64,000 nt of DNA from Aureimonas fodinaquatilis (GTDB lineage: Bacteria > Pseudomonadota > Alphaproteobacteria > Rhizobiales > Rhizobiaceae): contig NZ_VTWH01000003.1 of assembly GCF_008369445.1 (NCBI RefSeq), positions 124,001-188,000 on the forward strand, in the 5' to 3' direction. The notes under the pieces are model-generated. The model worked only from the letters and a program-made list of their open reading frames with translations, was not told where the DNA came from and did no database searches. Positions 19,804 to 38,654 of this stretch are shown here, one piece after another. The translations under genes and the position numbers were made by a program. Every line of letters starts with the position of its first letter. The first letter of the stretch is position 1.

Positions 19804-19880
<77 letters not shown>

Positions 19881-19891
19881 CTGATAACGAC

Positions 19892-19922: not shown

Positions 19923-19950
19923 GGTGTTTGCAAACGGCCTCGGTGACGTT

Positions 19951-20835: not shown

Positions 20836-20845
20836 TGTTATAACA
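20836..20845. promoter_or_regulatory. TGTTATAACA palindrome, candidate GntR operator (copy 1)
   Basis: A perfect 10-bp palindrome followed by A, at the head of the rightward SDR-SDR-E1-E2 operon. The same 11-mer TGTTATAACAA occurs beside the island's GntR gene (37917-37927). Shared regulation is inferred. Confidence 0.6.
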
Positions 20846-20919
20846 AATAACATTACTTACACTGAGAAGCAGATCGTGGAGCTCTGCGGATATGCTCGGA
20901 CTTTGGGAGGAGTGAGCGC

Positions 20920-20988
20920 ATGCCAGAAAACTGTTGCGAGGCGGCGCGTCTCAGCCCAGCAGAATGGATGCGTTGCTGTGACTTTTGA
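20920..20988 (+). CDS. Possible 22-residue Cys-rich leader peptide
   Basis: An ATG with an excellent ribosome-binding site (GGAGG at 20906-20910, nine bases ahead) opens a 22-codon frame containing two Cys-Cys pairs (CCEA and MRCCDF). It ends inside the start of the SDR gene, overlapping the proposed GTG (20978) out of frame. It could be a translated leader coupled to the SDR, or a relic of an older start. No function is known; existence as a peptide is unproven. Confidence 0.35.
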   Translation: MPENCCEAARLSPAEWMRCCDF

Positions 20989-21712
20989 TTTCCAGAACAA
21001 AACTCTGCTGTTGACCGGGGCCAATGGCGGTATTGGCCGAGAAGTCGCACGGGTTTTCTGCGCAGGCGGTGCCAATCTTGTGCTGGCCGATCGCGATGCC
21101 GAGGCCTTGCGTGAATTTGCCGACACCTTAGATACTTCCGCCGTGCTGGTGCAGAAGCTGGATGCAGCAGATCCTGCATCGGTAGCCAGCCTTGTTGATG
21201 CTGCCGTTGCCAGATTCGGCCAGACTGACCATGTCGTGCCAAGCGCGGGCATCTACCTTGCTGAGCCCTTTGCCGAGATGACCGATGAGCAGTGGCGACG
21301 CACGCTTTCGATCAATCTGGATGGTGTGTTCTATCTGCTCAGCCGGTTGCAGCCGCATCTGGCATCTGGCTCATCCATAACCAATCTGACCTCGCTGGCG
21401 GCGCATCGCGGCGCGACATCCAATGCACATTACTCGGCGTCGAAAGGGGCATTAACCTCACTGACCCGCAGCCTTGCCAGAGAATTGGGGCCAAAGACCC
21501 GGGTTAACGCGGTTGCGCCGGGTATTATTGAGACGCCCATGATCCAGGATTTTCTGAAGACAAGGGCTGAAAGCACGTTGGCGCAGACCCCCTTGGGGCG
21601 GTTGGGGAAACCCGAAGAGGTGGCGAGTGTCGTCGCCTTTCTTGCCTCAGATGCAGCCTCTTTCATCACGGGCGAAACCATCCATGTGAATGGCGGCCTT
21701 TACATGCTGTGA
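20978..21712 (+). CDS. SDR-family oxidoreductase (first gene of rightward operon)
   Basis: Classical short-chain dehydrogenase/reductase of 244 residues from a GTG that yields the normal N-terminus (TFDFQNKTLLLTGANGGIGR). Motifs are TGANGGIG (cofactor), Ser and YSASKG (catalytic), and C-terminal GETIHVNGGLYML. Asp in LADRDAEAL after beta-2 favours NAD(H). An upstream frame extension exists, but the strongest ribosome site there serves a different frame (the 22-aa ORF). It heads the operon SDR-SDR-E1-E2 behind a TGTTATAACA site. Substrate unknown; presumably an alcohol intermediate of island A. Confidence 0.85.
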   Translation: MTFDFQNKTLLLTGANGGIGREVARVFCAGGANLVLADRDAEALREFADTLDTSAVLVQKLDAADPASVASLVDAAVARFGQTDHVVPSAGIYLAEPFAEMTDEQWRRTLSINLDGVFYLLSRLQPHLASGSSITNLTSLAAHRGATSNAHYSASKGALTSLTRSLARELGPKTRVNAVAPGIIETPMIQDFLKTRAESTLAQTPLGRLGKPEEVASVVAFLASDAASFITGETIHVNGGLYML

Positions 21713-21756
21713 CGGCCGGGTCCGGCCTTTTTTGATGAAGAAAGAAGGATGACGCC

Positions 21757-22512
21757 ATGGCAGGTTTGTTGCAGGGGCGGCTGGCATTGATCACAGGGGC
21801 CGGGCGGGGGCTTGGTTCAGCGATTGCGCAGGGCATGGCTGAGGCCGGTGCAAGGGTGATCCTTGCCGATTTGAATGGCGCTGACGTTGAAACTCAGGCC
21901 GAAACGCTTCGCAAAGCCGGGCTTGACGCGCGCGGCGTCGCGCTGGACGTGACAGACCGTGCGGCACTGGCGGAGCATGCCGCGCGCCTCATGGCAGATG
22001 AAGGTGGGCTGGATGTGCTGGTCAACAATGCCGGTGTTGCGGGGCGCGCAAGCTTTGATGATCCTGCCGTGGCCGAGGTCTGGGACCGTGTGATTGCCGT
22101 CAATCTGGAAGGGACGTTCAACGCTTCGCAGGCGCTGACACCTGCGCTGATCGCACGCAAGGGAAATGTGGTGCATCTCTCCTCCGTTGCCGGTTTTGTC
22201 GCGGGGGGGTCGACTGCCGGCTATGTTGTTTCGAAAGGCGCAGTGCGCTCGCTGACGCAGGTTATGGCGCGCGATCTGGCGCAGCATGGGGTGCGCGTCA
22301 ATGCAGTAGCGCCCGGTATCATGATGAGCCAGATGGCGGTCGCCCAACTGAACCGCCCGGGCGGTGCGGACTGGTTTCTGAACCGCGTGCCGATGAAACG
22401 CATTGGTGAAACCCGCGAAATCGTCGATCCGGTCATCTTCCTAGCTTCCGACATGGCCAGTTTCATCACCGGCACCGTGCTGCCTGTCGATGGCGGCTTC
22501 CTCGCCGCCTGA
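21757..22512 (+). CDS. SDR-family oxidoreductase
   Basis: Second short-chain dehydrogenase of the operon, 251 residues, with AGAAGGA ahead of the ATG. Contains TGAGRGLGSAIAQGMAEAG, NNAGVAG, HLSSVAG and YVVSKGAV (catalytic Ser, Tyr, Lys) and the C-terminal TGTVLPVDGGF. Asp in ILADLNGAD predicts NAD preference. It is distinct from the preceding SDR and probably acts on another intermediate or stereoisomer. The fused E1 gene starts 43 bases downstream. Resembles 3-oxoacyl-ACP-reductase-like dehydrogenases in annotation space, but the catabolic context makes a fatty-acid role unlikely. Confidence 0.87.
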   Translation: MAGLLQGRLALITGAGRGLGSAIAQGMAEAGARVILADLNGADVETQAETLRKAGLDARGVALDVTDRAALAEHAARLMADEGGLDVLVNNAGVAGRASFDDPAVAEVWDRVIAVNLEGTFNASQALTPALIARKGNVVHLSSVAGFVAGGSTAGYVVSKGAVRSLTQVMARDLAQHGVRVNAVAPGIMMSQMAVAQLNRPGGADWFLNRVPMKRIGETREIVDPVIFLASDMASFITGTVLPVDGGFLAA

Positions 22513-22555
22513 CTTACGGTCAACCCATTCCCGTTTACGTTCGCAGAGAGCCGAT

Positions 22556-24742
22556 ATGCCCGTTTTTCATGATCTGACCCCGAAAGCCCCTTGGCTCGAG
22601 ATCGTCGCAACCGACGAAGACCGCGCAGCGCTTGATCCGAAAACCGGCTTGACCATGTTGGCCCAGATGCATTTGATCCGCGCCTTTGAAGAAAAGGTGC
22701 TGGATCTTGCCGGGCAGAACCTTGTGCACGGACCGGCTCATTCTGCAATTGGTCAGGAAGGCGGCGCGGTCGGCTCAGCTTTGGCGATGCGGCCCTCAGA
22801 TCAGGTCAATGGCTCACACCGGGCGCATCACCAGTTTCTCGCCAAAGCGCTCAGCTATGTGGCGCAGCAGGGCATCGATCCGAAATTGCCCTTTGGTGAA
22901 GGCGTGCGGGAGCTTGCGACAAAGACGCTCGCCGAGATCATGGGCCTGGCGCAGGGTTATTGCAAAGGCCGGGGCGGCTCTATGCATCTTCGCTGGGCGG
23001 AGAGCGGCAATCTTGGAACCAATGCGATTGTTGGCGGCGGCGTACCGATGGCTGCGGGCGCAGCCTTTGCGCAAAAAAACGCGGGAAACGGCGACGTTGT
23101 CTATACTTATTTCGGCGACGGAGCGGTGAATATCGGCTCGGTGCTGGAGACCATGAATCTGGCAGCCGCCTGGAAGCTGCCGATCTGCTTCTTTATCGAA
23201 AACAACCGTTATGCGGTTTCGACCAATGTTGAGGAAGTCACCGCCGAAACAAGGCTTTCGGCGCGAGGTCTGGCCTTTGGTATACCGTCATTCAAAGTTG
23301 ATGGGATGGACACGCTTTCGGTCTGGCTCGCTTCAAAAGAGGCCAACCGGATCATGCGCGCCGGTGAGGGCCCGACAATTATCGAGGCCGATCTTTACCG
23401 CTTTTTCCACCAGAACGGTCCGCTGCCCGGCTCAGCTTTTGGCTATCGCAGCAAAGAGGAGGAGGCCGAATGGCGCCAGCGCGACCCGCTGACGGCCATG
23501 GCGCGCGATTTGCAGGAACGGCAGATCATTGGCGAGGATGCGGTCACGGCTCTGCGCGAAAACTGCGTAAAGCTGATGGACGAGATTACCGACACCCTGG
23601 TTGAGACCTTCGATGGCAAAAGACGCATCATCCCGGCGCTTTGGCCGAAGGAAAGCTTCCGCGATTACGGCTTGCGCGGTGATCTGAGCGAAATGGCGGA
23701 TGCGCGCTATGATGAAGAGGCGACTTTTGCTGGCGAAACGGTGCAAAACGCCAAATTCATCGACGTCGTTGCAGATGTCATGACGCGCCGCATGGAAGAA
23801 GACGCGCGGATCGTTGTCATGGGCGAAGATGTCCACCGGCTGAAAGGTGGCACCAACGGGGCAACGCGTGGCCTTACGGCGCGCTTTCCGGATCGCTGCC
23901 TTGGCACGCCGATTTCCGAAAATGCCTTTACCGGCGTTGCGGCGGGCATTGCGGCGGATGGCCGGGGACGTCCGGTGATCGAATTCATGTATCCCGATTT
24001 CATGTGGGTCGCTGCAGATCAGGTTTTCAACCAGATTGGCAAGGCGCGCCACATGTTCGGCGGCGATAGTTCCATGCCGCTTGTCCTGCGCACCAAGGTT
24101 GCGATGGGAACGGGCTACGGCTCACAGCATTCGATGGACCCAGCGGGGATTTTTGCGACCGCGCCGGGCTGGCGCATCATCGCACCGTCGACGCCGTTTG
24201 ATTATGTCGGGTTGATGAATTCGGCCCTGCGCTGTGATGACCCGGTTCTGGTGATCGAACATGTCGATCTTTACAATTCCAAAGGCACTGCGCCTGCGAC
24301 GGATCTGGATTATTGCATTCCGCTGGGCAAGGCCCGCAAGGTGCGGGAAGGCGGGCGACTGACAATCCTGACCTATCTGGCGATGGTGGAGAAAACCCGC
24401 CTCGTCGTCGAGGAACTGGGTGTGGATGCTGAAATCATCGATCTGCGATCGCTGGATCGGGCCGGTCTCGACTGGGAGATGATCGAGGCTTCGGTGCACA
24501 AGACCAACAATGTGCTGATCGTCGAACAAGGTGCAGTCGGTACTTCATATGGCGGTTTTCTGGCCGATGAATTGCAGCGCCGCGTTTTTGATTGGCTGGA
24601 CCAGCCCATTGCCCGAGTGCATGGCGGAGAGGCTTCGCCCTCGATATCTAAAGTTCTGGAAACCGCTGCCTGCGCCCGCCCGCAGGATATTGCAGAGGGC
24701 ATCCGCGCTGTGATGGCCGGTCAGGGTCTGCCGCTGGCATAA
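22556..24742 (+). CDS. Fused alpha-beta E1 component of a 2-oxoacid/acetoin-type dehydrogenase complex
   Basis: ThDP-dependent dehydrogenase of 728 residues that joins the usually separate E1 alpha and beta chains. The alpha half (about 1-380) has GPAHSAIGQEGGAVGSALAM, a SHRAHHQFLAK motif and the ThDP signature FGDGAVNIGSVLETMNLAA. The beta half begins near residue 395 with ETVQNAKFIDVVADVMTRRM and contains GEDVHRLKGGTNGATRGL and EFMYPDFMWVAADQVFNQ. Together with the adjacent E2 it should transfer an acyl group to lipoate. Candidate substrates are a 2-oxoacid or a vicinal hydroxyketone such as acetoin. No E3 gene is nearby, so a shared dihydrolipoamide dehydrogenase is implied. Confidence 0.9.
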   Translation: MPVFHDLTPKAPWLEIVATDEDRAALDPKTGLTMLAQMHLIRAFEEKVLDLAGQNLVHGPAHSAIGQEGGAVGSALAMRPSDQVNGSHRAHHQFLAKALSYVAQQGIDPKLPFGEGVRELATKTLAEIMGLAQGYCKGRGGSMHLRWAESGNLGTNAIVGGGVPMAAGAAFAQKNAGNGDVVYTYFGDGAVNIGSVLETMNLAAAWKLPICFFIENNRYAVSTNVEEVTAETRLSARGLAFGIPSFKVDGMDTLSVWLASKEANRIMRAGEGPTIIEADLYRFFHQNGPLPGSAFGYRSKEEEAEWRQRDPLTAMARDLQERQIIGEDAVTALRENCVKLMDEITDTLVETFDGKRRIIPALWPKESFRDYGLRGDLSEMADARYDEEATFAGETVQNAKFIDVVADVMTRRMEEDARIVVMGEDVHRLKGGTNGATRGLTARFPDRCLGTPISENAFTGVAAGIAADGRGRPVIEFMYPDFMWVAADQVFNQIGKARHMFGGDSSMPLVLRTKVAMGTGYGSQHSMDPAGIFATAPGWRIIAPSTPFDYVGLMNSALRCDDPVLVIEHVDLYNSKGTAPATDLDYCIPLGKARKVREGGRLTILTYLAMVEKTRLVVEELGVDAEIIDLRSLDRAGLDWEMIEASVHKTNNVLIVEQGAVGTSYGGFLADELQRRVFDWLDQPIARVHGGEASPSISKVLETAACARPQDIAEGIRAVMAGQGLPLA

Positions 24743-24759
24743 CAATCGGGAACGCAAGA

Positions 24760-25998
24760 ATGGCAATTGAAATCACGCTTCCGTCGCTTTCCGCCGGGAT
24801 GGAAGACGCGGTCATCGCGAAATGGCTGGTTGCGGTCGGCGACCGGGTTACGAAAGGCCAATTGCTGGCTGAGGTGGAGACCGATAAAGCCACCATGGAA
24901 ATGGAGGCCGAGGCGGACGGGATCGTCGGGCAGCTTGCAGTTACCGACGGCCAGCGCGCGGAAGTGGGGCAACTTATCGCTGTTCTGCTGGCGGACGGTG
25001 AGTGCGTTTCGGCAGTGGCTGAGTCCGCGCCTGAGGCCGCACCCAATAAACTCGTACCAGTTCCAAAACCAGCCGCCGCCGTGCCGGTGGTGGCGGGTGA
25101 GCGCAAGCATTCGGCATCACCGTTGGCGCGCAGGCTGGCGGCTGATGCTGGGCTGAATCTGACTGGCGTGACCGGTAGCGGCCCGCGGGGTCGTATCGTG
25201 AAAATAGATGTTCAGCGTTTGCGCGATGAGGCCTCTGTTGCATCTGCTCCGCCGCGGGCTGCCGCCGCTGCTCCGGTAGCAGCATCCGCCGGAAACATTC
25301 CAGCCGGGATCGGGCCATATGAGGCGAAGCCTTTGTCAAACATGCGCCGCCACATTGCCCGGCGTCTGCTTGAGGCCAAGACCACAATCCCGCATTTCTA
25401 CCTCTCGGTGGATTGCGAAATCGACGAATTGCTGGCGCTGCGCAGCAAGATCAATACGGGCCGTGACAAGGCCGATCGAATTTCAGTCAATGACATGGTG
25501 ATCAAAGCAGCCGCCTTTGCGCTTCGCAAAGTGCCAGAGGCGAATGTGATCTGGAACGGCGACGAAATTCTGCAACTGACCGATGTCGACATCTCGGTTG
25601 CTGTCGCCACCGAAGGCGGGCTGATCACGCCCATTCTGCGCGGCGCTGACCGGATGAGTCTTGGCACCCTCTCAGCCGAAATGAAATCGCTGGCTGAGCG
25701 CGCCCGGGCAAATCGTTTGCGCCCGGACGAGTTTCAGGGCGGTGGCTTTTCTGTGTCCAATCTCGGCATGTTTGGAGTCAAGACCTTCTCGGCGATCATC
25801 AACCCGCCGCAAAGCTGCATTCTGGCAGTTGGCGCAAGTGAGCGCCGCCCGGTCGGGCGCGGCGATCAGATTGTGCTGGCGGATGTGATGAGTGTGACGC
25901 TTTCGGTCGATCACCGTTCAGTCGATGGCGCTGTGGGCGCAAAACTGCTTGCTGCGTTCAAAGAAGGGATCGACGATCCGATGAGCCTTCTGCTCTGA
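24760..25998 (+). CDS. Dihydrolipoamide acyltransferase (E2) of the same complex
   Basis: E2 of 412 residues. An N-terminal lipoyl domain carries the lipoylation Lys in VETDKATMEMEAEADG (about residue 45). An Ala/Pro-rich linker follows. The peripheral-subunit-binding domain is SPLARRLAADAGLNLTGVTG (about residues 118-150), and the C-terminal acetyltransferase core has LSVDHRSVDGAVGAKLL with the catalytic His and Asp. It accepts the acyl group from the fused E1 encoded 17 bases upstream and passes it to CoA. A single lipoyl domain is typical of acetoin and branched-chain complexes. Last gene of the rightward operon. Confidence 0.93.
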   Translation: MAIEITLPSLSAGMEDAVIAKWLVAVGDRVTKGQLLAEVETDKATMEMEAEADGIVGQLAVTDGQRAEVGQLIAVLLADGECVSAVAESAPEAAPNKLVPVPKPAAAVPVVAGERKHSASPLARRLAADAGLNLTGVTGSGPRGRIVKIDVQRLRDEASVASAPPRAAAAAPVAASAGNIPAGIGPYEAKPLSNMRRHIARRLLEAKTTIPHFYLSVDCEIDELLALRSKINTGRDKADRISVNDMVIKAAAFALRKVPEANVIWNGDEILQLTDVDISVAVATEGGLITPILRGADRMSLGTLSAEMKSLAERARANRLRPDEFQGGGFSVSNLGMFGVKTFSAIINPPQSCILAVGASERRPVGRGDQIVLADVMSVTLSVDHRSVDGAVGAKLLAAFKEGIDDPMSLLL

Positions 25999-26033
25999 AC
26001 CTTTGGCCTTCTATCTTCGATAAGCCATTGAGA

Positions 26034-26052
26034 GGCCGCTGGATCAGCGGCC
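26034..26052. terminator. Hairpin between the convergent operons of island A
   Basis: GGCCGCTG, loop GAT, CAGCGGCC: a perfect 8-bp stem overlapping the stop of the leftward GMC gene and 35 bases after the E2 stop. There is no T-run; probably a weak bidirectional terminator. Confidence 0.45.
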
Positions 26053-27663
26053 CTCATTCAGAATGATATCGGCACCTTTGGCAGCAAGCATCATCACTGC
26101 CGCCTGCGTATTGCCCGAGACCATTTCCGGCATGATCGAGGCGTCGATCACCCGCAGGCCTGCAATGCCATGCACACGCAGTTTCGGGTCAACCACGGCC
26201 ATTGAATCCTGGCCCATGCGGCAGGTGCCGATGGCATGATAGATCGTCTGGCCATTGGCGCGCGCGAAGGACAGCCAGTCTTCGTCGCTGACACATTCGG
26301 CGCCGGGGCTGAGTTCGGCCACACGCCAGGCATCCATCGGGCTTTGTCCGATGATCTCACGCGCCAGTTTCATGCCATCAACCATCGCGCGGCGGTCTTC
26401 CTCGTGATCAAGAAAATTCGGGACGATTTCCGGCTGTATGGTCAGATCAGGAGAAACTGCGTGAATAGAGCCGCGCGATTGCGGACGCAACTGCGTGACG
26501 CCAAGCGTCATGCCGGGAAACTTGTGCAGCTTGCGTTCGGCTGCGTTGGCATAGCTTGCATGCATGAAGAAATACTGCACATCGGGCCGGTCGAGCCCTG
26601 CGCGTGAGCGCAGGAAGCCATGCGTCAATCCGGTGCCATAGGTCAGCACGCCGCGCCGCTGCAGCCCGTATTTCATCACCTCGAGAAACAGGCGGGGGAA
26701 GCGGGTACTTTCATTCAGCGTCACCGGTTGCGAGACGCGCCAGTTCATCCGGGTACAGAAATGGTCGATGTAATTCTCGCCCACGCCGGGCAGGGCATGG
26801 CGTGTTTCGATGCCAAGCGCGGCAAGTCGCGCTGGATCGCCGATCCCGGCAAGTTCCAGAAGCTGCGGTGTTTGAACAGCGCCTGCGGCAAGAACAACCT
26901 CCCGCGCATGAACCCGCGTGGCGGGTGCGCCGCTTTGACTAAGGGTGATACCTTTCGCAGCAAGCCCTTCAAGCACAAGGCCGGTGACGCGGGCATCGGT
27001 CAGCACCGTCAGGTTGGGTCTCTTACGGGCCGGTTCAAGCCAGCTGCGATCAGCCGAATAGCGCTCACCGTTTCGTTGATTAACCTGATACCAGCCAACG
27101 CCTTCCTGAGAGGCGGCGTTGTAGTCAGGGTTGAAGCGCTGGCCTTGAGCAATGGCGGCATCTATCCATGCCTGGCCAATCGCATTCTGCTCGATCACCT
27201 CGTTAACCGGCAGCGGGCCATTATACCCGCGCATAGGGTCGTTACCGGCCTTGCCCCAGCTTTCAATCGCGCGGAACCAGGGCAGGACATCATCCCATCC
27301 CCAGCCAGTCGCGCCGCTGCTGGCCCACTGGTCATAATCCTGCGGCTGGCCGCGCACATAGATCATGCCGTTGATCAGGGTTGAGCCGCCCAGTCCCTTG
27401 CCACGCGGAATGGCAATGCGGCGAAAATCGGTTGCCTGTTCTTCCTTGCTCCAGAAGCCCCAATTGTAGCGCCTGTTGACCAGAAGTTTGTAGAAGCCTG
27501 CCGGAATGCGGATCCATGGCGAGCGAGCTTCGCCCCCGGCTTCGCACAGAAGCACTTTATCTCTGCCAGAGCGCGACAGGGCCTCGGCCAGAATGCAACC
27601 GGCGGTGCCGCCGCCGACGATGATGTAATCAAACCGCGCATCGGGCGGCAGGTGCTGAGCCAT
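26044..27663 (-). CDS. GMC-family FAD oxidoreductase (choline-dehydrogenase-like)
   Basis: Flavoprotein alcohol dehydrogenase of 539 residues. The FAD-binding motif DYIIVGGGTAGCILAEALSR starts at about residue 13. GMC signature 1 reads GKGLGGSTLINGMIYVRG, and the C-terminus has YHAIGTCRMGQDSMAVVDP with the catalytic His and IDASIMPEMVSGNTQAAVMM. No betaine-aldehyde dehydrogenase is nearby, so choline is unlikely. In this operon it presumably oxidises a primary or secondary alcohol of the imported compound. No signal peptide, so cytosolic or membrane-associated. Last gene of the leftward operon. Confidence 0.92.
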   Translation of the reverse strand: MAQHLPPDARFDYIIVGGGTAGCILAEALSRSGRDKVLLCEAGGEARSPWIRIPAGFYKLLVNRRYNWGFWSKEEQATDFRRIAIPRGKGLGGSTLINGMIYVRGQPQDYDQWASSGATGWGWDDVLPWFRAIESWGKAGNDPMRGYNGPLPVNEVIEQNAIGQAWIDAAIAQGQRFNPDYNAASQEGVGWYQVNQRNGERYSADRSWLEPARKRPNLTVLTDARVTGLVLEGLAAKGITLSQSGAPATRVHAREVVLAAGAVQTPQLLELAGIGDPARLAALGIETRHALPGVGENYIDHFCTRMNWRVSQPVTLNESTRFPRLFLEVMKYGLQRRGVLTYGTGLTHGFLRSRAGLDRPDVQYFFMHASYANAAERKLHKFPGMTLGVTQLRPQSRGSIHAVSPDLTIQPEIVPNFLDHEEDRRAMVDGMKLAREIIGQSPMDAWRVAELSPGAECVSDEDWLSFARANGQTIYHAIGTCRMGQDSMAVVDPKLRVHGIAGLRVIDASIMPEMVSGNTQAAVMMLAAKGADIILNEGR

Positions 27664-27709
27664 TGTGCTGTAAACTCCGTGAACCCGGGGCTGGGGTTCG
27701 GTGCAGCGG

Positions 27710-28510: not shown

Positions 28511-28517
28511 CGGATCC

Positions 28518-29315: not shown

Positions 29316-29318
29316 GGT

Positions 29319-31842: not shown

Positions 31843-31851
31843 GAACTTTCC

Positions 31852-32736
31852 TCACGACAGATGCGAAAGGGCCTTCCGACTGCCAAAAAGGCCGGATGGC
31901 TTGAGGATAAGGATGAGGAGGAACAGTCCGAAGACCACCGCCTCGCGCAGGCCGGAGCCGATATAGAATCCCGCCATGGCGTCGATTACGCCGATCACCA
32001 GCGCGCCGAAGAAAGCGCCCGGGATCGAACCGAGGCCACCCAGAACCACGACGACGAAGGCCGTTAGCACGAAGTAGATACCGGTGTTGGATGAGGTCGG
32101 GTAAAGCGGCGCAATCATCACAGCGGCGAGGCCGACGCAGGCGGCACCGATGGCGAAGCTGAGGACGTAGATGCGCGGCACGTTGACGCCCATCAGTTCA
32201 GCTGCAGCGCGGTGCTGCGCTACCGACCGGATCGCGCGGCCAGTTTGTGTTTTCTTAAGGAAAAGCTGCAATCCAATCACCAGCGCCGTGGCGGCGATGA
32301 AGATATATATCTGACCGATCAGCACCCGCACCGGACCGATATCGACGGGGGTGCGCAGTCCGTAATTCGGCGTGTTGGCGATATCAGCGCCAAAAATCAG
32401 CAATGCGAGGTTCATCATCGCGGTTGAAAGGCCGACCGTTGCAAATATCTGCACATGGTCATCCTCGGCCCCCATAAGAGGCTGGATCAGCAGCCTTTGC
32501 GTCAAGGCACCCAGAATAATCATCGCCGGAACGACCATGATGACCGAAGCATAGGGGTGAAGACCCAGATTTGTGGTGATGATCCAGGTTATGAACATGC
32601 CCGCCATGAGAAATTCACCATGGGCAAAGTTTACGACCTTGACGATACCAAATATCAGCGTCAGCCCGATGGCGACGATGGCAAACAGCCCACCAAGCAT
32701 AAGGCCGTTTGTAAGAACTTGTAGAAATGTCGTCAT
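31852..32736 (-). CDS. livH: ABC transporter permease, LivH-like
   Basis: Inner-membrane permease of 294 residues with about eight hydrophobic helices. Begins TTFLQVLTNGLMLGGLFAIV and has the family motif GIVKVVNFAHGEFLMAGMF and, in the second half, VLGGLGSIPGAFFGALVIG. It pairs with the LivM half of the fusion protein encoded 9 bases downstream to form the translocation pore. The binding-protein gene lies 48 bases upstream. No substrate-specific feature can be read. Confidence 0.94.
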   Translation of the reverse strand: MTTFLQVLTNGLMLGGLFAIVAIGLTLIFGIVKVVNFAHGEFLMAGMFITWIITTNLGLHPYASVIMVVPAMIILGALTQRLLIQPLMGAEDDHVQIFATVGLSTAMMNLALLIFGADIANTPNYGLRTPVDIGPVRVLIGQIYIFIAATALVIGLQLFLKKTQTGRAIRSVAQHRAAAELMGVNVPRIYVLSFAIGAACVGLAAVMIAPLYPTSSNTGIYFVLTAFVVVVLGGLGSIPGAFFGALVIGVIDAMAGFYIGSGLREAVVFGLFLLILILKPSGLFGSRKALSHLS

Positions 32737-32784
32737 TTCAGGCTCCCCGGAAGGGGGACGGCATTGCTGCCGTCCGCGTCACTG

Positions 32785-33984
32785 TCAGTTGCTGAAACGG
32801 ATTTCATTGCTGGCTGCTTCGGCCGGGTAGACCGTCACCAACTCACCATCCTGCCACTGCATACCCATCATGAACGCGCGCTCATTCTGGTTGTTTTCGC
32901 CGAATTTGAAGCCGTAGCCGGTGGCGGTGGTGCCATTCGGAATGTCGAGCGTTTTCATCGCTTCAACAATCTGGTCGGCCTCAAAACCTTCTGCATTTTG
33001 CAGTGCTTCAAAAATTGCCTTTGCGCCGACATAGTTGTTCAGCGAATGGCCGGAGCGCGGCGCGGTTCCGTATTTTTCCTGATAGGCAGCGACGAATTCG
33101 GTCAGGCCGGGGGTGGCTTCGGTATTGACGATGAACTGCGTGAAATCGACGTCGAAAACCCCGTCAATTATGTCATGGCCCACAGCATCCGCAGTCGGTT
33201 GCATTGAATAGCCGCCGCCGCCGCCGATGATTGCAGTTGGCTTATAGCCGGCTTCATTCGCCTGTTGCAGGAATAGGACCGAGTCATTCTGATACGAGGT
33301 CTGCAACACGACATCGACGCCTGCATTGCGCAGTTCGAGAACCAAGGAAGACATGTCAACGATATTGGCCGGGTACCCGCTCTTGATCGCGATGGTCAGG
33401 CCGTTTTCATCAGCTGTCGTCTGCTGATGTTTCGCAACCGAGGTTCCGTAGGAACTGTCTTCGTGGATGATGCCCAGTTTCAGCGTCTTGGGGTCAATGC
33501 CCATGCCGGGAGCGATGTTGTTAACCAGCATCTCAACCGAGTTGCGGCCGATATGTTCGGCAGTTGGATTGGTGCGGAACAGATATTCGAGCCCGCGCCC
33601 GGTCACTTCATCGGCCACCGCGCCCAGTTCGAAATATGGCACGCCGGCCAGTTCGGCCACCTGCGACGCTGCAATGGCGCGTGCGGAAGAATAGGTACCG
33701 AAGATCGCCTTCACGCCTTGCAGCGAAATCAGACGCCGCGCTTCGCCGGTGGCCTGATTGTTGTCGACCGCGTCGCCGCGCTCAAGCACGATCATTTCGC
33801 CGTTGATACCGCCGGCAGCATTGATCTCTTCCACGGCGATCTCCAGCCCGCGCGAGCTTTCATCACCCAAAAGCGCCAGTGGGCCGCTTATCGGATAGAG
33901 CGAACCGAAGCGCACCTCTGCCGAAGCCGGAAGTGCCAGCGAAAGCCCGAGGGCCGCACTCATCATGTATGTCGTAAGTTTCAT
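32785..33984 (-). CDS. Periplasmic binding protein of the Liv-type importer
   Basis: Type-I periplasmic binding protein of 399 residues. A Sec signal peptide (MKLTTYMMSAALGLSLALPASA, about residues 1-22) precedes VRFGSLYPISGPLALLGDES, the standard start of Peripla_BP_6 proteins. GGAGG precedes the ATG. Larger than LivK/LivJ (about 345 mature residues), and close in style to the binding proteins used for aromatic acids and amides. It would determine what island A imports; the ligand is unknown. Confidence 0.92.
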   Translation of the reverse strand: MKLTTYMMSAALGLSLALPASAEVRFGSLYPISGPLALLGDESSRGLEIAVEEINAAGGINGEMIVLERGDAVDNNQATGEARRLISLQGVKAIFGTYSSARAIAASQVAELAGVPYFELGAVADEVTGRGLEYLFRTNPTAEHIGRNSVEMLVNNIAPGMGIDPKTLKLGIIHEDSSYGTSVAKHQQTTADENGLTIAIKSGYPANIVDMSSLVLELRNAGVDVVLQTSYQNDSVLFLQQANEAGYKPTAIIGGGGGYSMQPTADAVGHDIIDGVFDVDFTQFIVNTEATPGLTEFVAAYQEKYGTAPRSGHSLNNYVGAKAIFEALQNAEGFEADQIVEAMKTLDIPNGTTATGYGFKFGENNQNERAFMMGMQWQDGELVTVYPAEAASNEIRFSN

Positions 33985-34004
33985 GTTTTCCTCCCTAAAT
34001 AAAA

Positions 34005-35726
34005 TCAGTAGTCAAGCGCATGTTTGCCGGTAAAGCTTGAGACTGGTGGCCAAGCCCGTTCATCGGTCACGACGTCGATGACTGTCAGCACGTTAGCGGC
34101 GATGGCGTCTTGAAGCGCTGCGGGCAGCTGGTCGGCTTGGTCTACCCTGACCCCTCTGACCCCGCAGGCTTTTGCGATGGCTGCATGATCGACTGGCTGG
34201 AAATGCACCACATCGGTATGCGCGCCAAAAAGGCTCAGTTCAGCGTGTTTCTGGTAGCCGAGAATCTGGTTGTTCAGCACAACCACGACGACTGGCAGGT
34301 TCATCCGCTTTGAGGTTTCGATTTCGGCCCAGACATGGGCAAAACCGCCATCTCCGGTCAGGCAGATTACCGGGGCATCGGGGCGTGCGGCCTTGGCGCC
34401 AAGCGCAAAGGGCAGTCCCCAGCCTAGCCCGGCCAGACCGCGTGGTGTCAAAATGCGCTGACCGGCCTTGCGGATGGTGATGCCATCGGCAACCCAGATC
34501 GACGAATATGAGGCATCCGCCACGACAATCGCCTCGGGTGAAATCAGCTTGTCGATTTCAGCAACAATCCGCTCTGGCCGCAAAGGTGATGCGTCTGATA
34601 AGGCATGGGAACGGGCCGCAGCACTGCTTGCAAGTCCCTCACGGATTTGGGTTTCGACCGCAGAGCGTGCTTTGATGCGGGCGTTGAGATCGCGTGATTG
34701 CAGAGCGGTGTTCAGTGCCTCGAGCCCAAGGCGGGCGTCGCCCACAAGGCGCAGAGCTTCATAATTGCGCCCAACCTCATTGCCGTCGATATCAAGCTGA
34801 ATATAGCGCGCACCCTGCGGGTAAAGCTGCCAGCTATCGGTGCCATTCTGGTTTGTGCGGTTGCCGACCAAAAGGACAACATCCGCTTCGCGAACCATCG
34901 GTGCCAGATCCGCGGCCTTGGCACCCGGCCCCATGAAGTAACCTACGACCCCAAGCGACAGCGAATGCGTTTCATCGACAGAGCCTTTGCCCATGACCGT
35001 GGTGGCGACGGGAAAACCGAGCTCCTGTAATTCGCTCAGTGCCTGATGCGCCCGCGATGCATGAATGCCGCCGCCTGCGATGACCAGTGGCCGCGCTGCA
35101 CCCGCCAACAGGTCGGCGGCCTCGGCAATTCTGGCCGGATCGGGCGCAACCGGATCAAGCGGGAAATGGCCGTAGGCTGCTTCTCGGCCAAGGTGCGGTT
35201 GTTGCTTGCGCAACTCGTCCATCAGATCGACTGGTACAAGCAGCACGGCAGGACCGGCGCGGCCACTCGTGGCCGCGGTGATCGCCATATCGACATAGTC
35301 CTCGATCCGCGAAATTTCGGTTACGCGGCGCACCCATTTTGCGACGCCCTGAAACAAAGCGGGGTGGTCAAGCTCCTGAAAGGCGTTGCGGTCGGTATGC
35401 TGGCGATGCACATCCTGCACGATCGCCACCACCGGGATTGAGGCCTTCAGCGCTTCTGCCAGCCCCGCGACCAGAAGCGTCGCCGCTGGTCCGTTCTGCC
35501 CGGTAACTACGGCCACCTGACCCGAGATGCGGGCAAAGGCATCGGCCATCGCCGCACCAGCATTTTCGGTGCGGTAACCGACCTGCGTGATGCCGTAATC
35601 CGGCGCGGCAAGGAAAAAGGCTGACGGGATGGACTGGCCGAAAACCTTGGTGACACCATGACGGCGCAAAGCTGCGGCCAGAAGATGCGCTCCGGTCTGG
35701 TTCGAACGGATTTCCACGTTTTTCAT
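34005..35726 (-). CDS. ThDP-dependent acetolactate-synthase-like enzyme
   Basis: Three-domain ThDP enzyme of 573 residues in the ALS/POX/benzoylformate-decarboxylase superfamily. The catalytic Glu is in GYRTENAGAAMADAFARI (about residue 57). The ThDP/Mg motif GDGGFAHVWAEIETSKRMNL leads to LNNQILGYQKH near the C-terminus. No small regulatory subunit accompanies it, so branched-chain biosynthesis is unlikely. Family members also hydrolyse cyclic diketones or decarboxylate 2-oxoacids, and either reaction would suit this catabolic operon. Its ATG overlaps the quinone-oxidoreductase-like stop by one base, implying coupling. Exact reaction unknown. Confidence 0.88.
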   Translation of the reverse strand: MKNVEIRSNQTGAHLLAAALRRHGVTKVFGQSIPSAFFLAAPDYGITQVGYRTENAGAAMADAFARISGQVAVVTGQNGPAATLLVAGLAEALKASIPVVAIVQDVHRQHTDRNAFQELDHPALFQGVAKWVRRVTEISRIEDYVDMAITAATSGRAGPAVLLVPVDLMDELRKQQPHLGREAAYGHFPLDPVAPDPARIAEAADLLAGAARPLVIAGGGIHASRAHQALSELQELGFPVATTVMGKGSVDETHSLSLGVVGYFMGPGAKAADLAPMVREADVVLLVGNRTNQNGTDSWQLYPQGARYIQLDIDGNEVGRNYEALRLVGDARLGLEALNTALQSRDLNARIKARSAVETQIREGLASSAAARSHALSDASPLRPERIVAEIDKLISPEAIVVADASYSSIWVADGITIRKAGQRILTPRGLAGLGWGLPFALGAKAARPDAPVICLTGDGGFAHVWAEIETSKRMNLPVVVVVLNNQILGYQKHAELSLFGAHTDVVHFQPVDHAAIAKACGVRGVRVDQADQLPAALQDAIAANVLTVIDVVTDERAWPPVSSFTGKHALDY

Positions 35727-36742
35727 CAGACGGTCCTATCTTCGCAGGCTGTTGTTTTCAGGATGATTTTTCCGGTATGAGCCGAGGCTTCGAGATGAGC
35801 ATGGGCAGCTTGAACATCTGCCAGGTCAAATACGGAATCGATCACCGGACGGGCACCTGCGTTTAAAATCAGCGGCAGTGCTTCAGCCTCGACAGCGCGG
35901 GCAAGCGCGGCTTTCATCGCCAGCGGCCGCGCCCGCAGCGTCGATCCGCTAAGGGTCAGGCGTTTGAACAGAAGCGGCCCCATATCCAGATCGGCGCGTG
36001 ACCCCTGCTGGAAGGCGATTTGCGCAATGCGGCCATCCTCGGCCACAAGGCTGAGATTTTTTTGCATATACGGCCCGCCGACCATGTCGAGGATCACTTC
36101 AGGGCCGCGGCCATCTGTGAGGGCGCGGACGGGCTCAACGAAATCGCCGTTGCGGTAATTGACCGAGGCCAATGCGCCAAGCGCCTCGGATGCACGGCAT
36201 TTTGCATCGCTGCCGCAGGTGGTGATGACACGCGCACCGATGGCTTTGGCCAAAAGCGTGGCGGTGACGCCAATGCCGGAGGTGCCGCCATGGATCAGAA
36301 CCGTTTCGCCAGCCTTGAGTCCCGCGCGGATGAAAAGATTGCTCCACACGGTGAAATAGGTTTCCGGGATGCCTGCGGCCTCAATCATGCTCAGACCGTC
36401 TGGCACCGGGATGCAGGCTTCGGCCTGCACGATCGCTTCTTCGGCATAGGCGCCGCCTGCGACAAGCGCCATTACCCGGGATCCCGGTGCAAAGCGGTTC
36501 ACATCCGGCGCCGCTTCAAGGACTTCCCCTGAGAGTTCCAGCCCCAGCACATCGGTAACGCCAGGCGGCGGCGGGTAGTTGCCTGCGCGCTGCATCGCAT
36601 CCGGACGGTTGACGCCCGCCGCATGGACCCGCACCCGCATCTCACCCGGCCGAAGAGCTGGCAGGTTGCGACGCACCAGTGTCAGAACCTCCGGCCCACC
36701 CGGCTGTGTGGTTACGACTGACAGAATTCCAGCTTCAGACAT
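35726..36742 (-). CDS. Zinc-free MDR-family quinone-oxidoreductase-like enzyme
   Basis: Medium-chain dehydrogenase/reductase of 338 residues in the QOR/enoyl-reductase branch. The NADPH site is GGTSGIGVTATLLAKAIGAR, and the start region is GPEVLTLVRRNLPALRPGE. It lacks the structural-zinc cysteine cluster. The start at MSEAGIL is chosen for GGGGGAG upstream; a 13-codon extension is rejected. Likely reduces an alpha,beta-unsaturated carbonyl or quinone with NADPH. Second gene of the leftward operon, 35 bases after the zinc ADH. Confidence 0.87.
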   Translation of the reverse strand: MSEAGILSVVTTQPGGPEVLTLVRRNLPALRPGEMRVRVHAAGVNRPDAMQRAGNYPPPPGVTDVLGLELSGEVLEAAPDVNRFAPGSRVMALVAGGAYAEEAIVQAEACIPVPDGLSMIEAAGIPETYFTVWSNLFIRAGLKAGETVLIHGGTSGIGVTATLLAKAIGARVITTCGSDAKCRASEALGALASVNYRNGDFVEPVRALTDGRGPEVILDMVGGPYMQKNLSLVAEDGRIAQIAFQQGSRADLDMGPLLFKRLTLSGSTLRARPLAMKAALARAVEAEALPLILNAGARPVIDSVFDLADVQAAHAHLEASAHTGKIILKTTACEDRTV

Positions 36743-36777
36743 TGGTTTTCTCCCCCCAATTGTTTCGCGACCAGCTC

Positions 36778-37845
36778 TCACGAAGCCGGATGCAGCATGA
36801 CTTTCAAAGCCGAACGATCGCGGGCGAGGGCAAAGCCTTCGGACGCGCGCTCCAGCGGCAAACGATGTGTGATCATGCGGCCATAGCGATCTGGCTCGGC
36901 GGCAAGGCGTGCCACCGCTTCCTGAAAGCAGGCCCGTGTGGAATCGTGACTGCCGCGCATCTGTTTTTTGCCGCGCACCAGTTGGTTAATATCCAGCGTC
37001 AGCGGGGCATCATGAATGCCAACCACGACGAGAACGCCCTCAGAGCGCAGAATGGCAAGGCCCTCGGCCACACTGGATGGTCGTCCTGTGGCTTCCAGAA
37101 CAATATCAGGACCCTGGCCGAAATGGCGGGCAACCGCATCGGTAAGGGTTTCATCCGCAAGATCGACTGTGCGTGCAATGCCCAGTTCACGCGCGAGCGT
37201 CAGGCGCGGGCCGTCCCGGAAGCCTGCCAGCATGACATCCGCACCCCGGCTTGCCGCGACCAGTGCTATACCAAAGCCAATAGGGCCGGGGCCCAGCACC
37301 AGAACGCGCCTGCGGCCCCTTTCATTTCCTTCACTGGAAACGAGGCCGGAGGTGTTGACGGCGTTGATTGAGACTGCCAGCGGCTCGGCCAGCGCGGCAA
37401 TGTCATGTGCCAGGCCCGCAGGCAAGCGCAGTGCATTAGCGGCAGGTATGCGCACCTTCGCAGCAAAACCGCCATCGCGGTGCAATCCGATGACCCGGCG
37501 GTTCGCGCAAGCGCTGTAGTGTCCTTCATGGCAGGCAACGCAATCACCGCAGGTGACTGTTGGCAGGCAAACTATGTTGTCCCCCGGACGCAGCGCATCA
37601 GGTCCGGCTGCGGCATCGGCGCCGATGGCCAGTACCGTTCCCGCAAATTCATGCCCAAGGGTCAGCGGTAGATAGAGGCGCATGAAGTCGTAGGCGGAGT
37701 CGCCAGACCACGCATGAAGATCGCTGCCGCAAATCCCGCAAGCTTCAACAGACACAATGATTTCATCTGCCGCAGGCACATCAACGAAGGCAAGATTGAT
37801 CAGATCAGCCCCTTGTCCGGGGATGCATTTTTGCAGCGCTAACAT
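36778..37845 (-). CDS. Zinc-dependent alcohol dehydrogenase (sorbitol/threonine-dehydrogenase-like)
   Basis: MDR-family polyol/alcohol dehydrogenase of 355 residues. Catalytic-zinc residues are in ACGICGSDLHAWSGD and GHEFAGTV, and the structural-zinc cysteines in TCGDCVACHEGHYSAC. The cofactor motif is VLGPGPIGFGIALVAASRG. The start (MLALQKC) is supported by GAGGAGG; 11 upstream codons in frame are rejected. First gene of the leftward operon, divergent from the GntR gene with the TGTTATAACA site between. Presumably the first or an early oxidation step of island A. Confidence 0.9.
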   Translation of the reverse strand: MLALQKCIPGQGADLINLAFVDVPAADEIIVSVEACGICGSDLHAWSGDSAYDFMRLYLPLTLGHEFAGTVLAIGADAAAGPDALRPGDNIVCLPTVTCGDCVACHEGHYSACANRRVIGLHRDGGFAAKVRIPAANALRLPAGLAHDIAALAEPLAVSINAVNTSGLVSSEGNERGRRRVLVLGPGPIGFGIALVAASRGADVMLAGFRDGPRLTLARELGIARTVDLADETLTDAVARHFGQGPDIVLEATGRPSSVAEGLAILRSEGVLVVVGIHDAPLTLDINQLVRGKKQMRGSHDSTRACFQEAVARLAAEPDRYGRMITHRLPLERASEGFALARDRSALKVMLHPAS

Positions 37846-37916
37846 TAAAAGCCTCCTCTGGTGCATACGGCTCCTCAACCGCTAGCATGCACCATCCCTA
37901 TGCGTTATAAGCCACA

Positions 37917-37926
37917 TGTTATAACA
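37917..37926. promoter_or_regulatory. TGTTATAACA palindrome, candidate GntR operator (copy 2)
   Basis: Perfect palindrome between the divergent ADH and GntR genes. A related GCGTTATAAGC lies 12 bases to the left (37902-37912). The same TGTTATAACAA stands ahead of the rightward operon at 20836. Confidence 0.65.
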
Positions 37927-37976
37927 ACGTGTCAATTCTTGACGACGCTTCAGGTCCTTTAATTACGGGGGAAAAG

Positions 37977-38654
37977 ATGTTGGAAATCAGTGGAAGTGAT
38001 TGGATTAAGCCGATTCAACGTCAGAGCCTGAGCGAGAACGCCTATACAAATCTGCGCGAGGCGCTGATGGAAGGGCGGATGAAGCCTGGCGATGACCTGC
38101 CATTGCGGCCGGTTTCGCGCAGCTTTGGCATCAGCGCGACACCAATGCGTGAGGCTCTGCTGCGCCTTGTCACCGAACATGCGTTGGAAATGGACGGGCG
38201 TGGCCGGATTTCGGTTCCGCATCTCACGCGCACCACTTTGCTGGAGGTTCGCAAGATTCGCTCTTTCCTTGAGGGGAATGCCGCACGCGAAGCCGCGCTG
38301 CACGCGAAACCCGAAGCTGTGGATCAGCTTGAGCAACTGCATGTTGAACTCAGCGCCGCCCAGGATGCGCGGGATTTCCCGCGCGCAATCGGGTTGAACA
38401 CCAAGTTTCACCTGAAACTCTGCGAAATCGCCACGCTGCCAGTGTCTTATGAAGTTGTATCCAACCTCTGGGTGCGGTGCGGGCCGTTGCTGTCGCATCT
38501 CTATGATTTTGGCATACCCGCGAATTGGGATCCCCATCCGCATGTGCGCGTGGTGGCGGCGATCCGTGCGCGCGATCCCGATGCTGCCTATGCGGCGCTG
38601 ATCCACGATATTGAAGGCGGCGGAGCGGGCCTGCTGGCGCATGTGAAGGACTGA
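37977..38654 (+). CDS. GntR-family (FCD domain) regulator of island A
   Basis: Transcription regulator of 225 residues. The winged helix (about residues 18-85) has NAYTNLREALMEGRMKPGDD and SRSFGISATPMREALLRLVT. The C-terminal FCD helical ligand domain has VRKIRSFLEGNAAREAALHA and LNTKFHLKLCEIA with a candidate metal-binding His. The ATG after GGGGGAAAAG is preferred over the GTG at 37929. It is divergent from the leftward operon and lies beside a TGTTATAACA site that recurs at the other operon, so it probably controls both, with a pathway metabolite as inducer. Confidence 0.88.
   Translation: MLEISGSDWIKPIQRQSLSENAYTNLREALMEGRMKPGDDLPLRPVSRSFGISATPMREALLRLVTEHALEMDGRGRISVPHLTRTTLLEVRKIRSFLEGNAAREAALHAKPEAVDQLEQLHVELSAAQDARDFPRAIGLNTKFHLKLCEIATLPVSYEVVSNLWVRCGPLLSHLYDFGIPANWDPHPHVRVVAAIRARDPDAAYAALIHDIEGGGAGLLAHVKD

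What the first reader, a model, noticed from the sequence alone, without database searches (positions are those of the whole stretch)
20978..38654. Unrecognised pathway: Liv-type importer, ThDP lyase, fused E1/E2 complex, AroE-like enzyme, GMC oxidase and several dehydrogenases
The set suits stepwise oxidation of a polyhydroxylated or alicyclic carboxylate to a diketone or hydroxyketone, C-C cleavage by the ALS-like ThDP enzyme (compare cyclohexanedione hydrolase or IolD), and CoA capture by the E1/E2 complex. No aldehyde dehydrogenase, aldolase or kinase appears, so neither a sugar-kinase route nor choline use fits. I cannot match this combination to a described pathway.
Basis: inference. Interest (0 to 1): 0.72.

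Follow-up and report, generated by a model that had tools for sequence, protein, structure and literature searches.

The report
Undescribed polyol-type catabolic operon, co-regulated
A Paracoccus-like bacterium carries a set of importer and enzyme genes that is kept together in other bacteria and shares a conserved DNA control site; it probably takes up and breaks down an unidentified polyhydroxylated compound by a route not yet described.

Summary
A core of eleven genes (GntR regulator / Zn-ADH, PIG3-type oxidoreductase, ThDP enzyme, Liv-type binding protein, LivH, fused LivM-G, LivF, FabG-like SDR, AroE-like, GMC) is found in 34 of 80 ThDP-homologue loci, complete in 24 and in the same order in 33. 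The SDR-SDR-fused E1-E2 block is optional (6 of 29 genomes), but in Paracoccus it appears to belong to the same regulon: TGTTATAACA lies before the regulator/Zn-ADH pair and again before the E1/E2 block, its only two exact copies in the window. The 8-bp core occurs in 32 of 34 core loci and 0 of 46 other loci. The binding protein lacks two amino-acid-recognition residues of LivJ/LivK; the ThDP enzyme lacks two substrate residues of acetolactate synthase. A neighbouring ThDP clade with nearly identical likely active-site positions has dihydroxyacetone (DHA) kinase genes downstream in 12 of 13 rows, suggesting a C-C lyase that releases DHA or a similar ketone. Substrate unknown; an apiose-type branched polyol or acid is my leading guess. 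Against: 12 of 30 core genomes, this one included, have no DHA kinase domain. The listings I saw of five full-text searches held no description.

The parts
20836..20845 (.). operator TGTTATAACA in front of the SDR-SDR-E1-E2 block (142 bp before codon 20978)
   Evidence: same site, 0-1 mismatch, 73-149 bp upstream of SDR1 in five Paracoccus loci (L107, L143, L146-L148)
20978..21712 (+). short-chain dehydrogenase SDR1
   Evidence: domain match begins near residue 58-64 of the longer ORF 20828-21712; GTG start at 20978 inferred
21757..22512 (+). short-chain dehydrogenase SDR2 (best NCBIfam score to BudC meso-2,3-butanediol dehydrogenase, below cut-off)
22490..24742 (+). fused E1 (alpha + beta) of a 2-oxoacid/acetoin dehydrogenase-type complex
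   Evidence: E1_dh, Transket_pyr and Transketolase_C in one chain; no E1 equivalog cut-off met
24760..25998 (+). E2 acyltransferase with lipoyl, E3-binding and catalytic domains
   Evidence: TIGR01349 461.5 bits, cut-off 445
26044..27663 (-). GMC oxidoreductase (choline-dehydrogenase-like, below the betA cut-off)
   Evidence: in 27 of 34 core loci
27710..28510 (-). AroE-like dehydrogenase with Val at the place of AroE Ser14
   Evidence: in 28 of 34 core loci
28518..29315 (-). FabG-like SDR
   Evidence: NF004198 338 bits, cut-off 296; in 29 of 34 core loci, a related SDR in 3 more
29319..30074 (-). LivF-type ATPase
   Evidence: in 32 of 34 core loci
30010..31842 (-). fused LivM-LivG (permease + ATPase)
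   Evidence: in 33 of 34 core loci
31852..32736 (-). LivH-type permease
32785..33984 (-). Liv-type solute-binding protein without two of the LivJ/K residues for an alpha-amino acid
   Evidence: nearest solved structure 8wch, SAR11_0655 with L-pyroglutamate
34005..35726 (-). ThDP-dependent enzyme, PRK06112/NF004772 family, proposed C-C lyase
35726..36781 (-). PIG3-type NAD(P)H-quinone oxidoreductase-like enzyme
   Evidence: TIGR02824 454 bits, cut-off 297; in 28 of 34 core loci
36778..37878 (-). Zn-dependent alcohol dehydrogenase (threonine/scyllo-inosose dehydrogenase-like, below cut-offs)
   Evidence: in 31 of 34 core loci
37917..37926 (.). operator TGTTATAACA between regulator and Zn-ADH
37929..38654 (+). 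GntR/FCD regulator, divergent from the operon
   Evidence: in 32 of 34 core loci
38681..39769 (-). glycerol dehydrogenase-like Fe-ADH (possible DHA sink; membership doubtful)
   Evidence: NF006941 349 bits, cut-off 336; beside the core also in L027, L028 and L107, but in only 2 of 34 core loci; no matching operator

Best explanation
This is a catabolic regulon under one GntR/FCD regulator. A Liv-type ABC importer takes up a compound that is not an alpha-amino acid, most likely a small polyhydroxylated alcohol or acid. GMC, AroE-like, FabG-like and Zn-ADH dehydrogenases oxidise it to an alpha-hydroxyketone whose hydroxyl carbon is tertiary. The acetolactate-synthase-like ThDP enzyme then works in the cleaving direction: it breaks the bond between the keto carbon and the tertiary carbinol and releases a ketone, probably dihydroxyacetone (DHA), plus a short aldehyde or oxoacid. 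In Paracoccus an extra SDR-SDR-E1-E2 block with the same operator converts an acyloin- or oxoacid-type product to acyl-CoA, and a neighbouring glycerol dehydrogenase could take up DHA. Shown here: conservation, ThDP clade, shared operator sequence, and replacement of two amino-acid-binding and two acetolactate-synthase residues. Inferred: that the regulator binds the site, direction of the ThDP reaction, DHA as product, order of steps. Guessed: an apiose-type branched substrate.
For: Core set in 34 of 80 loci, all eleven genes in 24, same order and orientation of those present in 33. All 14 core rows of a 47-row tree are one clade (SH-aLRT 99). A relative at 57% (L119) has ThDP, Liv, ADH, SDR and quinone-oxidoreductase genes in another order. 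GTTATAAC in 32 of 34 core loci, 0 of 46 others, and between regulator and next gene in all 29 core loci printed. In the window TGTTATAACA has exact copies only at 37917 and 20836. Longer motif GTTATAACAAATNNCA in 23 of 30 core genomes, one place each apart from a symmetric pair in G312; control 2 hits; in this genome and four Paracoccus (G289, G290, G291, G317) that place is in front of the E1 block. Binding protein: LivJ Glu226 is Gly or Ala and Thr102 is Val in five cluster proteins aligned. ThDP: places of plant AHAS R377 and W574 are N294 and A495. Core and neighbouring clade share nearly all listed likely active-site positions; only 3 positions of the chain (169, 389, 497) differ with 85% or more agreement in each of the 14-row groups. 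In that clade (13 rows, SH-aLRT 97) 12 have DhaK downstream. DhaK (55% or more) is in 17 of the 46 non-core loci, in 16 of them within 206 bp after the ThDP match. DHA-linked neighbours of a core: GldA in the window, L027, L028, L107; DHA kinase in L114.
Against: Within the flanks held, no core locus has DhaK or DhaL (0 of 34) and 2 of 34 have GldA. 12 of 30 core genomes, this one included, have no Dak1 domain. My context B was defined by DhaK or a CoA-transferase, so '17 of 19' there is partly circular; the joint grouping of core and B rows has SH-aLRT 83 only, and which B rows are nearest is unresolved. The CoA-transferases and MaoC protein of context B are unexplained by CoA-free cleavage. 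Genome-wide, TGTTATAACA has 3 places against 2 for the reversed control, so its weight rests on position. Four ThDP relatives at 55-58% sit with aromatic-degradation genes or class III aminotransferases. Some core plasmids have aromatic-type genes a few kb away: UbiD/UbiX in L112, a carboxymuconolactone decarboxylase in L106, 4-oxalomesaconate tautomerase in L110. Fold comparison does not separate lyase, synthase and carboligase relatives. Close E1 genes are absent from 23 of 29 core genomes; in Rhodovulum and Allorhizobium the E1 block lacks the operator.
Confidence: 0.45

Rival explanations
1. [quoted passage not shown] the E1/E2 complex or CoA-transferases supply the CoA ester.
For: Context B holds a formyl-CoA-transferase-like class III CoA-transferase in 19 of 19 loci (partly by my grouping rule) and DhaK in 17 of 19. 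The first 12 Foldseek rows are HACL/HACS chains. The published 2-HIBA route has mpdB, mpdC and a ThDP gene in one cluster, with the GMC family named in a figure legend (passages of PMC7176365).
Against: No core locus has that CoA-transferase at 45% or more (0 of 34; one weak 37% match in L036), and none matches the one acyl-CoA ligase I used as a query, although the listed active-site positions match context B. By sequence ALS and Gcl score higher than HACL. Close E1 genes are in only 6 of 29 core genomes.
Confidence: 0.2
2. The pathway degrades an aromatic or phenylpropanoid side chain (for example an arylglycerol), with the ThDP enzyme as a benzoin- or benzoylformate-type lyase.
For: Several binding proteins in the fold list are complexes with aromatic acids. 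Benzaldehyde lyase is among the fold matches. Two ThDP relatives (55% and 58%) sit in aromatic clusters. UbiD/UbiX, a carboxymuconolactone decarboxylase and 4-oxalomesaconate tautomerase lie a few kb from the core in L112, L106 and L110.
Against: Those genes differ between the three records, so none is conserved with the core; I did not search the 34 core loci systematically for ring-cleavage genes. The neighbouring ThDP clade is tied to DHA kinases and, in part, sugar-type ABC importers.
Confidence: 0.15
3. A cyclitol or alicyclic pathway, with an IolD/CDH-like ring-cleaving ThDP enzyme.
For: The Zn-ADH scores against scyllo-inosose dehydrogenase IolM (167 bits, cut-off 450); the AroE-like protein belongs to a quinate/shikimate family.
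Against: CDH scores below ALS, HKA synthase, Gcl and HACL; the AroE-like protein lacks the Ser14 that in AroE binds the shikimate carboxylate (role recalled); IolM is far below cut-off; no gene is named inositol-specific in the annotated core plasmid stretches.
Confidence: 0.08
4. Ordinary branched-chain amino-acid importer and acetolactate synthase genes, gathered without a common pathway.
For: Database names: 'branched-chain amino acid ABC transporter', 'acetolactate synthase catalytic subunit'.
Against: Conserved order, clade and operator; residues for amino acids and acetolactate replaced.
Confidence: 0.03

Closest known systems
Acetolactate (acetohydroxyacid) synthase and HKA synthases BbmA/CsmA
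   Same: fold, ThDP motif, catalytic Glu, FQE motif
   Different: places of plant AHAS R377 and W574 are Asn and Ala; genes lie in an importer operon; the database name 'acetolactate synthase' rests on family naming
2-Hydroxyisobutyryl-CoA lyase pathway of Actinomycetospora (PMC7176365, passages read)
   Same: GMC-type oxidase, aldehyde dehydrogenase and ThDP enzyme for a tertiary carbinol
   Different: no CoA-transferase of that type, and no match to one acyl-CoA ligase query, in the 34 core loci; ThDP enzyme nearer to ALS/Gcl by sequence
D-apionate/apulose pathways (AptAB transketolase, OiaX; recalled)
   Same: branched hydroxyketone cleaved by a ThDP enzyme; oiaX, DHA-kinase-like and split transketolase genes flank the core in Salipiger profundus; OiaX-like genes in 12 of 30 core genomes, 5 of them at 74% or more
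   Different: no phosphorylating gene in the core; importer of Liv type; no OiaX match in this genome
Acetoin / 2,3-butanediol dehydrogenase operons (recalled)
   Same: SDR + SDR + E1 + E2, with an ALDH in L145-L148 and L134
   Different: E1 alpha and beta fused; E2 passes the mitochondrial-type PDH E2 cut-off; shares the operator of the Liv/ThDP operon in Paracoccus
TRIS degradation clusters (PMC10848231, passages read)
   Same: choline-dehydrogenase-like GMC enzyme acting on a hydroxymethyl compound
   Different: its main text holds neither 'branched-chain' nor 'shikimate'; the published route goes through 2-hydroxymethylserine (abstract known from recall)

Membership tests
Acetohydroxyacid (acetolactate) synthase | ThDP/Mg motif and catalytic Glu | tested here: met
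   E54, GDGGF (458-462) and N486 invariant in 47 sequences; aligned with plant AHAS
Acetohydroxyacid (acetolactate) synthase | substrate residues R377 and W574 (roles recalled) | tested here: not met
   aligned positions N294 and A495 (the printed chain is a W574L mutant); N294 invariant, A495 in 46 of 47 sequences
2-Hydroxyacyl-CoA lyase / oxalyl-CoA decarboxylase | CoA-activation partner in the operon | tested here: inconclusive
   class III CoA-transferase at 45% or more in 0 of 34 core loci; other kinds of CoA ligase not searched for beyond one query; E1/E2 could substitute in the 6 of 29 genomes that have it
2-Hydroxyacyl-CoA lyase / oxalyl-CoA decarboxylase | fold | tested here: inconclusive
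   HKA synthase, AHAS, Gcl and HACS rows lie within about 2.5 Z units
IolD / cyclohexane-1,2-dione hydrolase | closest family by sequence | tested here: inconclusive
   CDH 151 bits against 201 for AHAS; IolD not among the 25 of 45 NCBIfam rows shown; catalytic residues not aligned
Liv/HAAT importer | binding protein, two permease domains, two ATPase domains | tested here: met
Liv amino-acid binding proteins (LivJ/LivK) | Glu226 and Thr102 for the alpha-amino acid (roles and numbering recalled) | tested here: not met
   Gly or Ala, and Val, in the five cluster proteins aligned with LivJ/K; V123 invariant in 20 cluster proteins
Shikimate dehydrogenase AroE | catalytic Lys/Asp and Asn | tested here: met
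   K71, N92 and D108 aligned with E. coli AroE, kept in all 11 AroE-like rows
Shikimate dehydrogenase AroE | carboxylate-binding Ser14 (role recalled) and equivalog score | tested here: not met
   Val in all 11 AroE-like rows; 160 bits against the aroE cut-off 200
PDH / acetoin dehydrogenase complex | E1 alpha and beta domains plus lipoyl E2 | tested here: met
PDH / acetoin dehydrogenase complex | substrate (pyruvate, acetoin or other) | not testable with these tools
   no E1 equivalog cut-off met; E2 passes TIGR01349

The most novel reading that the evidence does not exclude
An acetolactate-synthase-like enzyme works backwards in a phosphate-free pathway for apiose-type branched compounds: an apionate- or apulose-like hydroxyketone is split into dihydroxyacetone and a two-carbon product, the mirror image of the acetolactate step of branched-chain amino-acid synthesis, under a single GntR operator that also controls a fused E1/E2 complex.
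Probability: 0.2. Interest if true: 0.75.

Novelty: new variant of a known kind. Interest (0 to 1): 0.55.

Why it matters
The cluster is found in Paracoccus, Salipiger, Sinorhizobium (pSymA of S. meliloti), Methylobacterium, Nitratireductor, Inquilinus and others, yet its genes are named as amino-acid importer, acetolactate synthase, FabG and shikimate dehydrogenase; the residues tested here argue against three of these names (importer, ThDP enzyme, AroE-like). Identifying it would correct many annotations, give a reaction to the PRK06112 ThDP family, and add a carbon source of plant- and sea-associated bacteria. The conserved operator makes the regulon directly testable.

Tried and rejected
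Rejected: plain branched-chain amino-acid import and acetolactate synthesis. TRIS degradation, considered because the Acidovorax record with a related cluster comes from TAP medium: the TRIS paper's main text has no match for 'branched-chain' or 'shikimate'. DHA kinase as an obligatory partner in core genomes: not upheld, Dak1 in 18 of 30 and not here. OiaX as an obligatory partner: in 12 of 30 and not here. Operator control of the GldA/transketolase unit: no exact site between GldA and TktN, where a different palindrome lies; a one-mismatch copy at 41865 lies inside the SDR reading frame and was not weighed. IolD/CDH comparison: no support found. CoA-ester lyase: kept as a rival.

Limits. Contexts were set by simple thresholds of mine: 34 A, 19 B, 12 C, 15 none; the last 27 were not studied one by one. 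The tree holds 47 rows (46 loci and the window), chosen for plausible starts. For the E1 search I gave 30 of the 34 core loci; 29 could be searched, L037 could not; searches used these 29 and this genome, whose completeness the tool does not give for the 29. That the longer-motif places lie between regulator and next gene was checked by coordinates for nine non-Paracoccus loci (L034, L035, L042, L043, L053, L061, L064, L069, L077), not for the rest. L021's, L022's and other unnamed loci were labelled but not used in counts. Gene labels rest on tblastn with the queries I chose, so genes without a query were not seen. Fold searches rank the ThDP relatives too close together to decide; CDH does not appear among the 50 rows shown. 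Literature: listings (20 of 35 papers; 20 of 339; 15 of 129; 0; 2) held no description; the library lacks most subscription papers. Searches were on side questions and gave nothing on the cluster. Residue roles in AHAS, LivJ and AroE and the apionate pathway are recalled.

Full report
Observation. The window is base 124001-188000 of contig 3 of a 3.93-Mb genome; its nearest named relatives for this cluster are Paracoccus. Reading leftwards from a divergent GntR/FCD regulator (37929-38654+), a closely packed series runs Zn-ADH, PIG3-type oxidoreductase, ThDP enzyme, Liv-type binding protein, LivH, a LivM-LivG fusion, LivF, FabG-like SDR, AroE-like protein and GMC oxidoreductase (37878 down to 26044). 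A second block runs towards it: SDR1, SDR2, a fused E1 and an E2 (20978-25998).

Conservation. By simple thresholds of mine, 34 of 80 loci hold the Liv importer (context A), 19 a class III CoA-transferase and/or DhaK (context B), 12 a looser Liv/ADH/SDR set (context C), and 15 none of these. In context A: regulator 32 of 34, Zn-ADH 31, PIG3 28, LivM-G 33, LivF 32, FabG-like SDR 29 (3 more with a related SDR), AroE-like 28, GMC 27. All eleven core genes are in 24 of 34; in 33 of 34 the genes present keep order and orientation, L054 does not. Some misses are contig ends. The set is also on pSymA of Sinorhizobium meliloti and on plasmids of Paracoccus, Rhodovulum (ThDP gene not in the core there), Salipiger, Pacificitalea and Neorhizobium. 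A 47-row tree puts its 14 context-A rows in one clade (SH-aLRT 99). A 57%-identical relative has ThDP, Liv, ADH, SDR and PIG3-type genes in another order.

The E1/E2 block. A close relative of the fused E1 (77% or more) is present in 6 of 29 context-A genomes searched (a seventh match is only 40% and holds a stop), and also in Paracoccus albus and two Rhodovulum plasmids. In L145-L148 the block lies next to the GMC gene and includes an aldehyde dehydrogenase. Of 297 genomes of the order, 10 including this one have an E1 match at E 1e-200; among these, L135 has SDR, AroE-like and Liv genes beside it and L134 SDR, E2, ALDH and sugar ABC genes. So the block is an optional module that also occurs elsewhere.

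One regulon. The gap between regulator and next gene contains GTTATAAC in all 29 context-A loci printed; over whole loci it is in 32 of 34 context-A loci and in 0 of the 46 others. In the window TGTTATAACA occurs exactly twice, at 37917 and at 20836, the latter in front of the E1/E2 block (0.13 copies of the 8-mer expected; a one-mismatch copy lies at 41865). Genome-wide it occurs at 3 places against 2 for the reversed control, so number alone shows nothing there; the third place lies before a CobW-like gene (named from its sequence by recall). L107, L143, L146, L147 and L148, all Paracoccus, carry the site upstream of SDR1 with 0-1 mismatch; Rhodovulum (with its own GntR gene there) and Allorhizobium do not, and L144 could not be judged. 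The longer motif GTTATAACAAATNNCA is found in 23 of 30 context-A genomes, one place each apart from a symmetric pair in G312, with 2 control hits. In this genome and four Paracoccus that place is the E1-block site. This ties the two blocks together in Paracoccus by a shared site as well as by position; binding is not shown.

What the proteins are not. Aligned with E. coli LivJ and LivK, five cluster binding proteins have Gly or Ala for Glu226 and Val for Thr102 (roles recalled); the nearest solved structure is SAR11_0655 with L-pyroglutamate. The AroE-like protein keeps the catalytic Lys, Asn and Asp (K71, N92, D108) but has Val for Ser14; its best PDB match is a 'shikimate dehydrogenase family protein' (155 bits), and 5-ketofructose reductase scores 93 bits. 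The ThDP enzyme keeps the catalytic Glu, but the places of plant AHAS R377 and W574 are Asn and Ala. Its predicted structure (pLDDT 89.7) matches HKA synthase, AHAS, glyoxylate carboligase and HACL structures about equally.

What it may do. DhaK (55% or more) is in 17 of the 46 non-core loci; in 16 of these it starts within 206 bp after the ThDP match (12 within 40 bp), in L040 another gene lies between. Since context B was defined partly by DhaK, the fairer count is by clade: 12 of the 13 rows of a supported clade (SH-aLRT 97) have it. The DhaK of L115 scores 376 bits against the dhaK1 cut-off 406, so it is DhaK-like, not certified DhaK. Core and context-B rows share nearly all positions I listed as likely active-site positions, and three positions of the chain differ with 85% or more agreement in each group. 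I infer the same reaction in both and, from the kinase, a DHA-like ketone as product. ThDP chemistry releases a ketone only from a tertiary carbinol next to the attacked carbonyl, so the substrate would be branched (established mechanism, applied by inference). Context A has no CoA-transferase of the context-B type at 45% or more (0 of 34), which speaks against a CoA ester there. In the window a glycerol dehydrogenase-like gene beside the operon (349 bits, cut-off 336) could take DHA.

Against this. No context-A locus has DhaK or DhaL within the flanks held and 2 of 34 have GldA; 12 of 30 context-A genomes lack the Dak1 domain, this one included; OiaX, a marker of apionate use (recalled), is in 12 of 30, 5 of them at 74% or more, and not here. 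The joint grouping of core and context-B rows has SH-aLRT 83. More distant relatives of the ThDP enzyme lie in other settings, and aromatic-type genes lie a few kb from the core in L106, L110 and L112. The substrate, the direction of the ThDP step and the role of the E1/E2 block remain untested.

Literature. Listings of full-text searches for the gene combination, for apionate/apulose routes and for the family name held no description (lists capped). Passages were read in PMC7176365 (2-HIBA lyase route) and PMC10848231 (TRIS); other papers were seen in listings only.

Verdict. A real and conserved catabolic gene set, with a shared operator in Paracoccus, and without a described pathway in what I could search.

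Noticed in passing
window 38681-43264: Glycerol dehydrogenase-like Fe-ADH, split transketolase (39982-41861), SDR (41803-42561) and a second GntR gene form a neighbouring unit also seen in L027, L028 and L107; the gap 39769-39982 holds a different palindrome (ATCATATATGAT).
   Followed up: partly
window 19804-20616: A tRNA-Met (19804-19880+) overlaps an ORF with a Pfam Recombinase domain (19837-20616-) just before SDR1, which may mark the edge of an inserted element.
   Followed up: no
L002/L017 (own genome, contig 3, 213898-215577): A second PRK06112-like ThDP paralogue (56% identical) lies about 26 kb beyond the window with sugar-type ABC permease-like genes and an aldehyde dehydrogenase-like gene.
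   Followed up: partly
L115, L116 and the 19 context-B loci: Related ThDP genes sit with CoA-transferases, a MaoC-like gene, DhaK-DhaL and in part sugar ABC genes: possibly a second undescribed pathway of the same enzyme family.
   Followed up: partly
L118, L121: ThDP relatives at about 55% lie between a class III-type aminotransferase and a FabG-like SDR, next to another ABC importer.
   Followed up: no
L109 (Acidovorax temperans pEP1): Related importer, SDR, ALDH, AroE-like, GlcD-like and GMC genes without a ThDP gene in the stretch, in an isolate from contaminated Tris-acetate-phosphate medium.
   Followed up: partly
window 45488-52219: Oligopeptide/nickel-type ABC importer genes with an MlrC-like protein (386 bits, far below its cut-off).
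   Followed up: no
L135: Compact set of GntR, SDR1-like, AroE-like, Liv-type, SDR and fused E1 genes without the ThDP gene in another genome of the order.
   Followed up: partly
Paracoccus genomes: Among six genomes, the two with GldA beside the core (this one, G290) have no Dak1 domain and the four with Dak1 (G289, G291, G292, G317) have no GldA there; too few to weigh.
   Followed up: no
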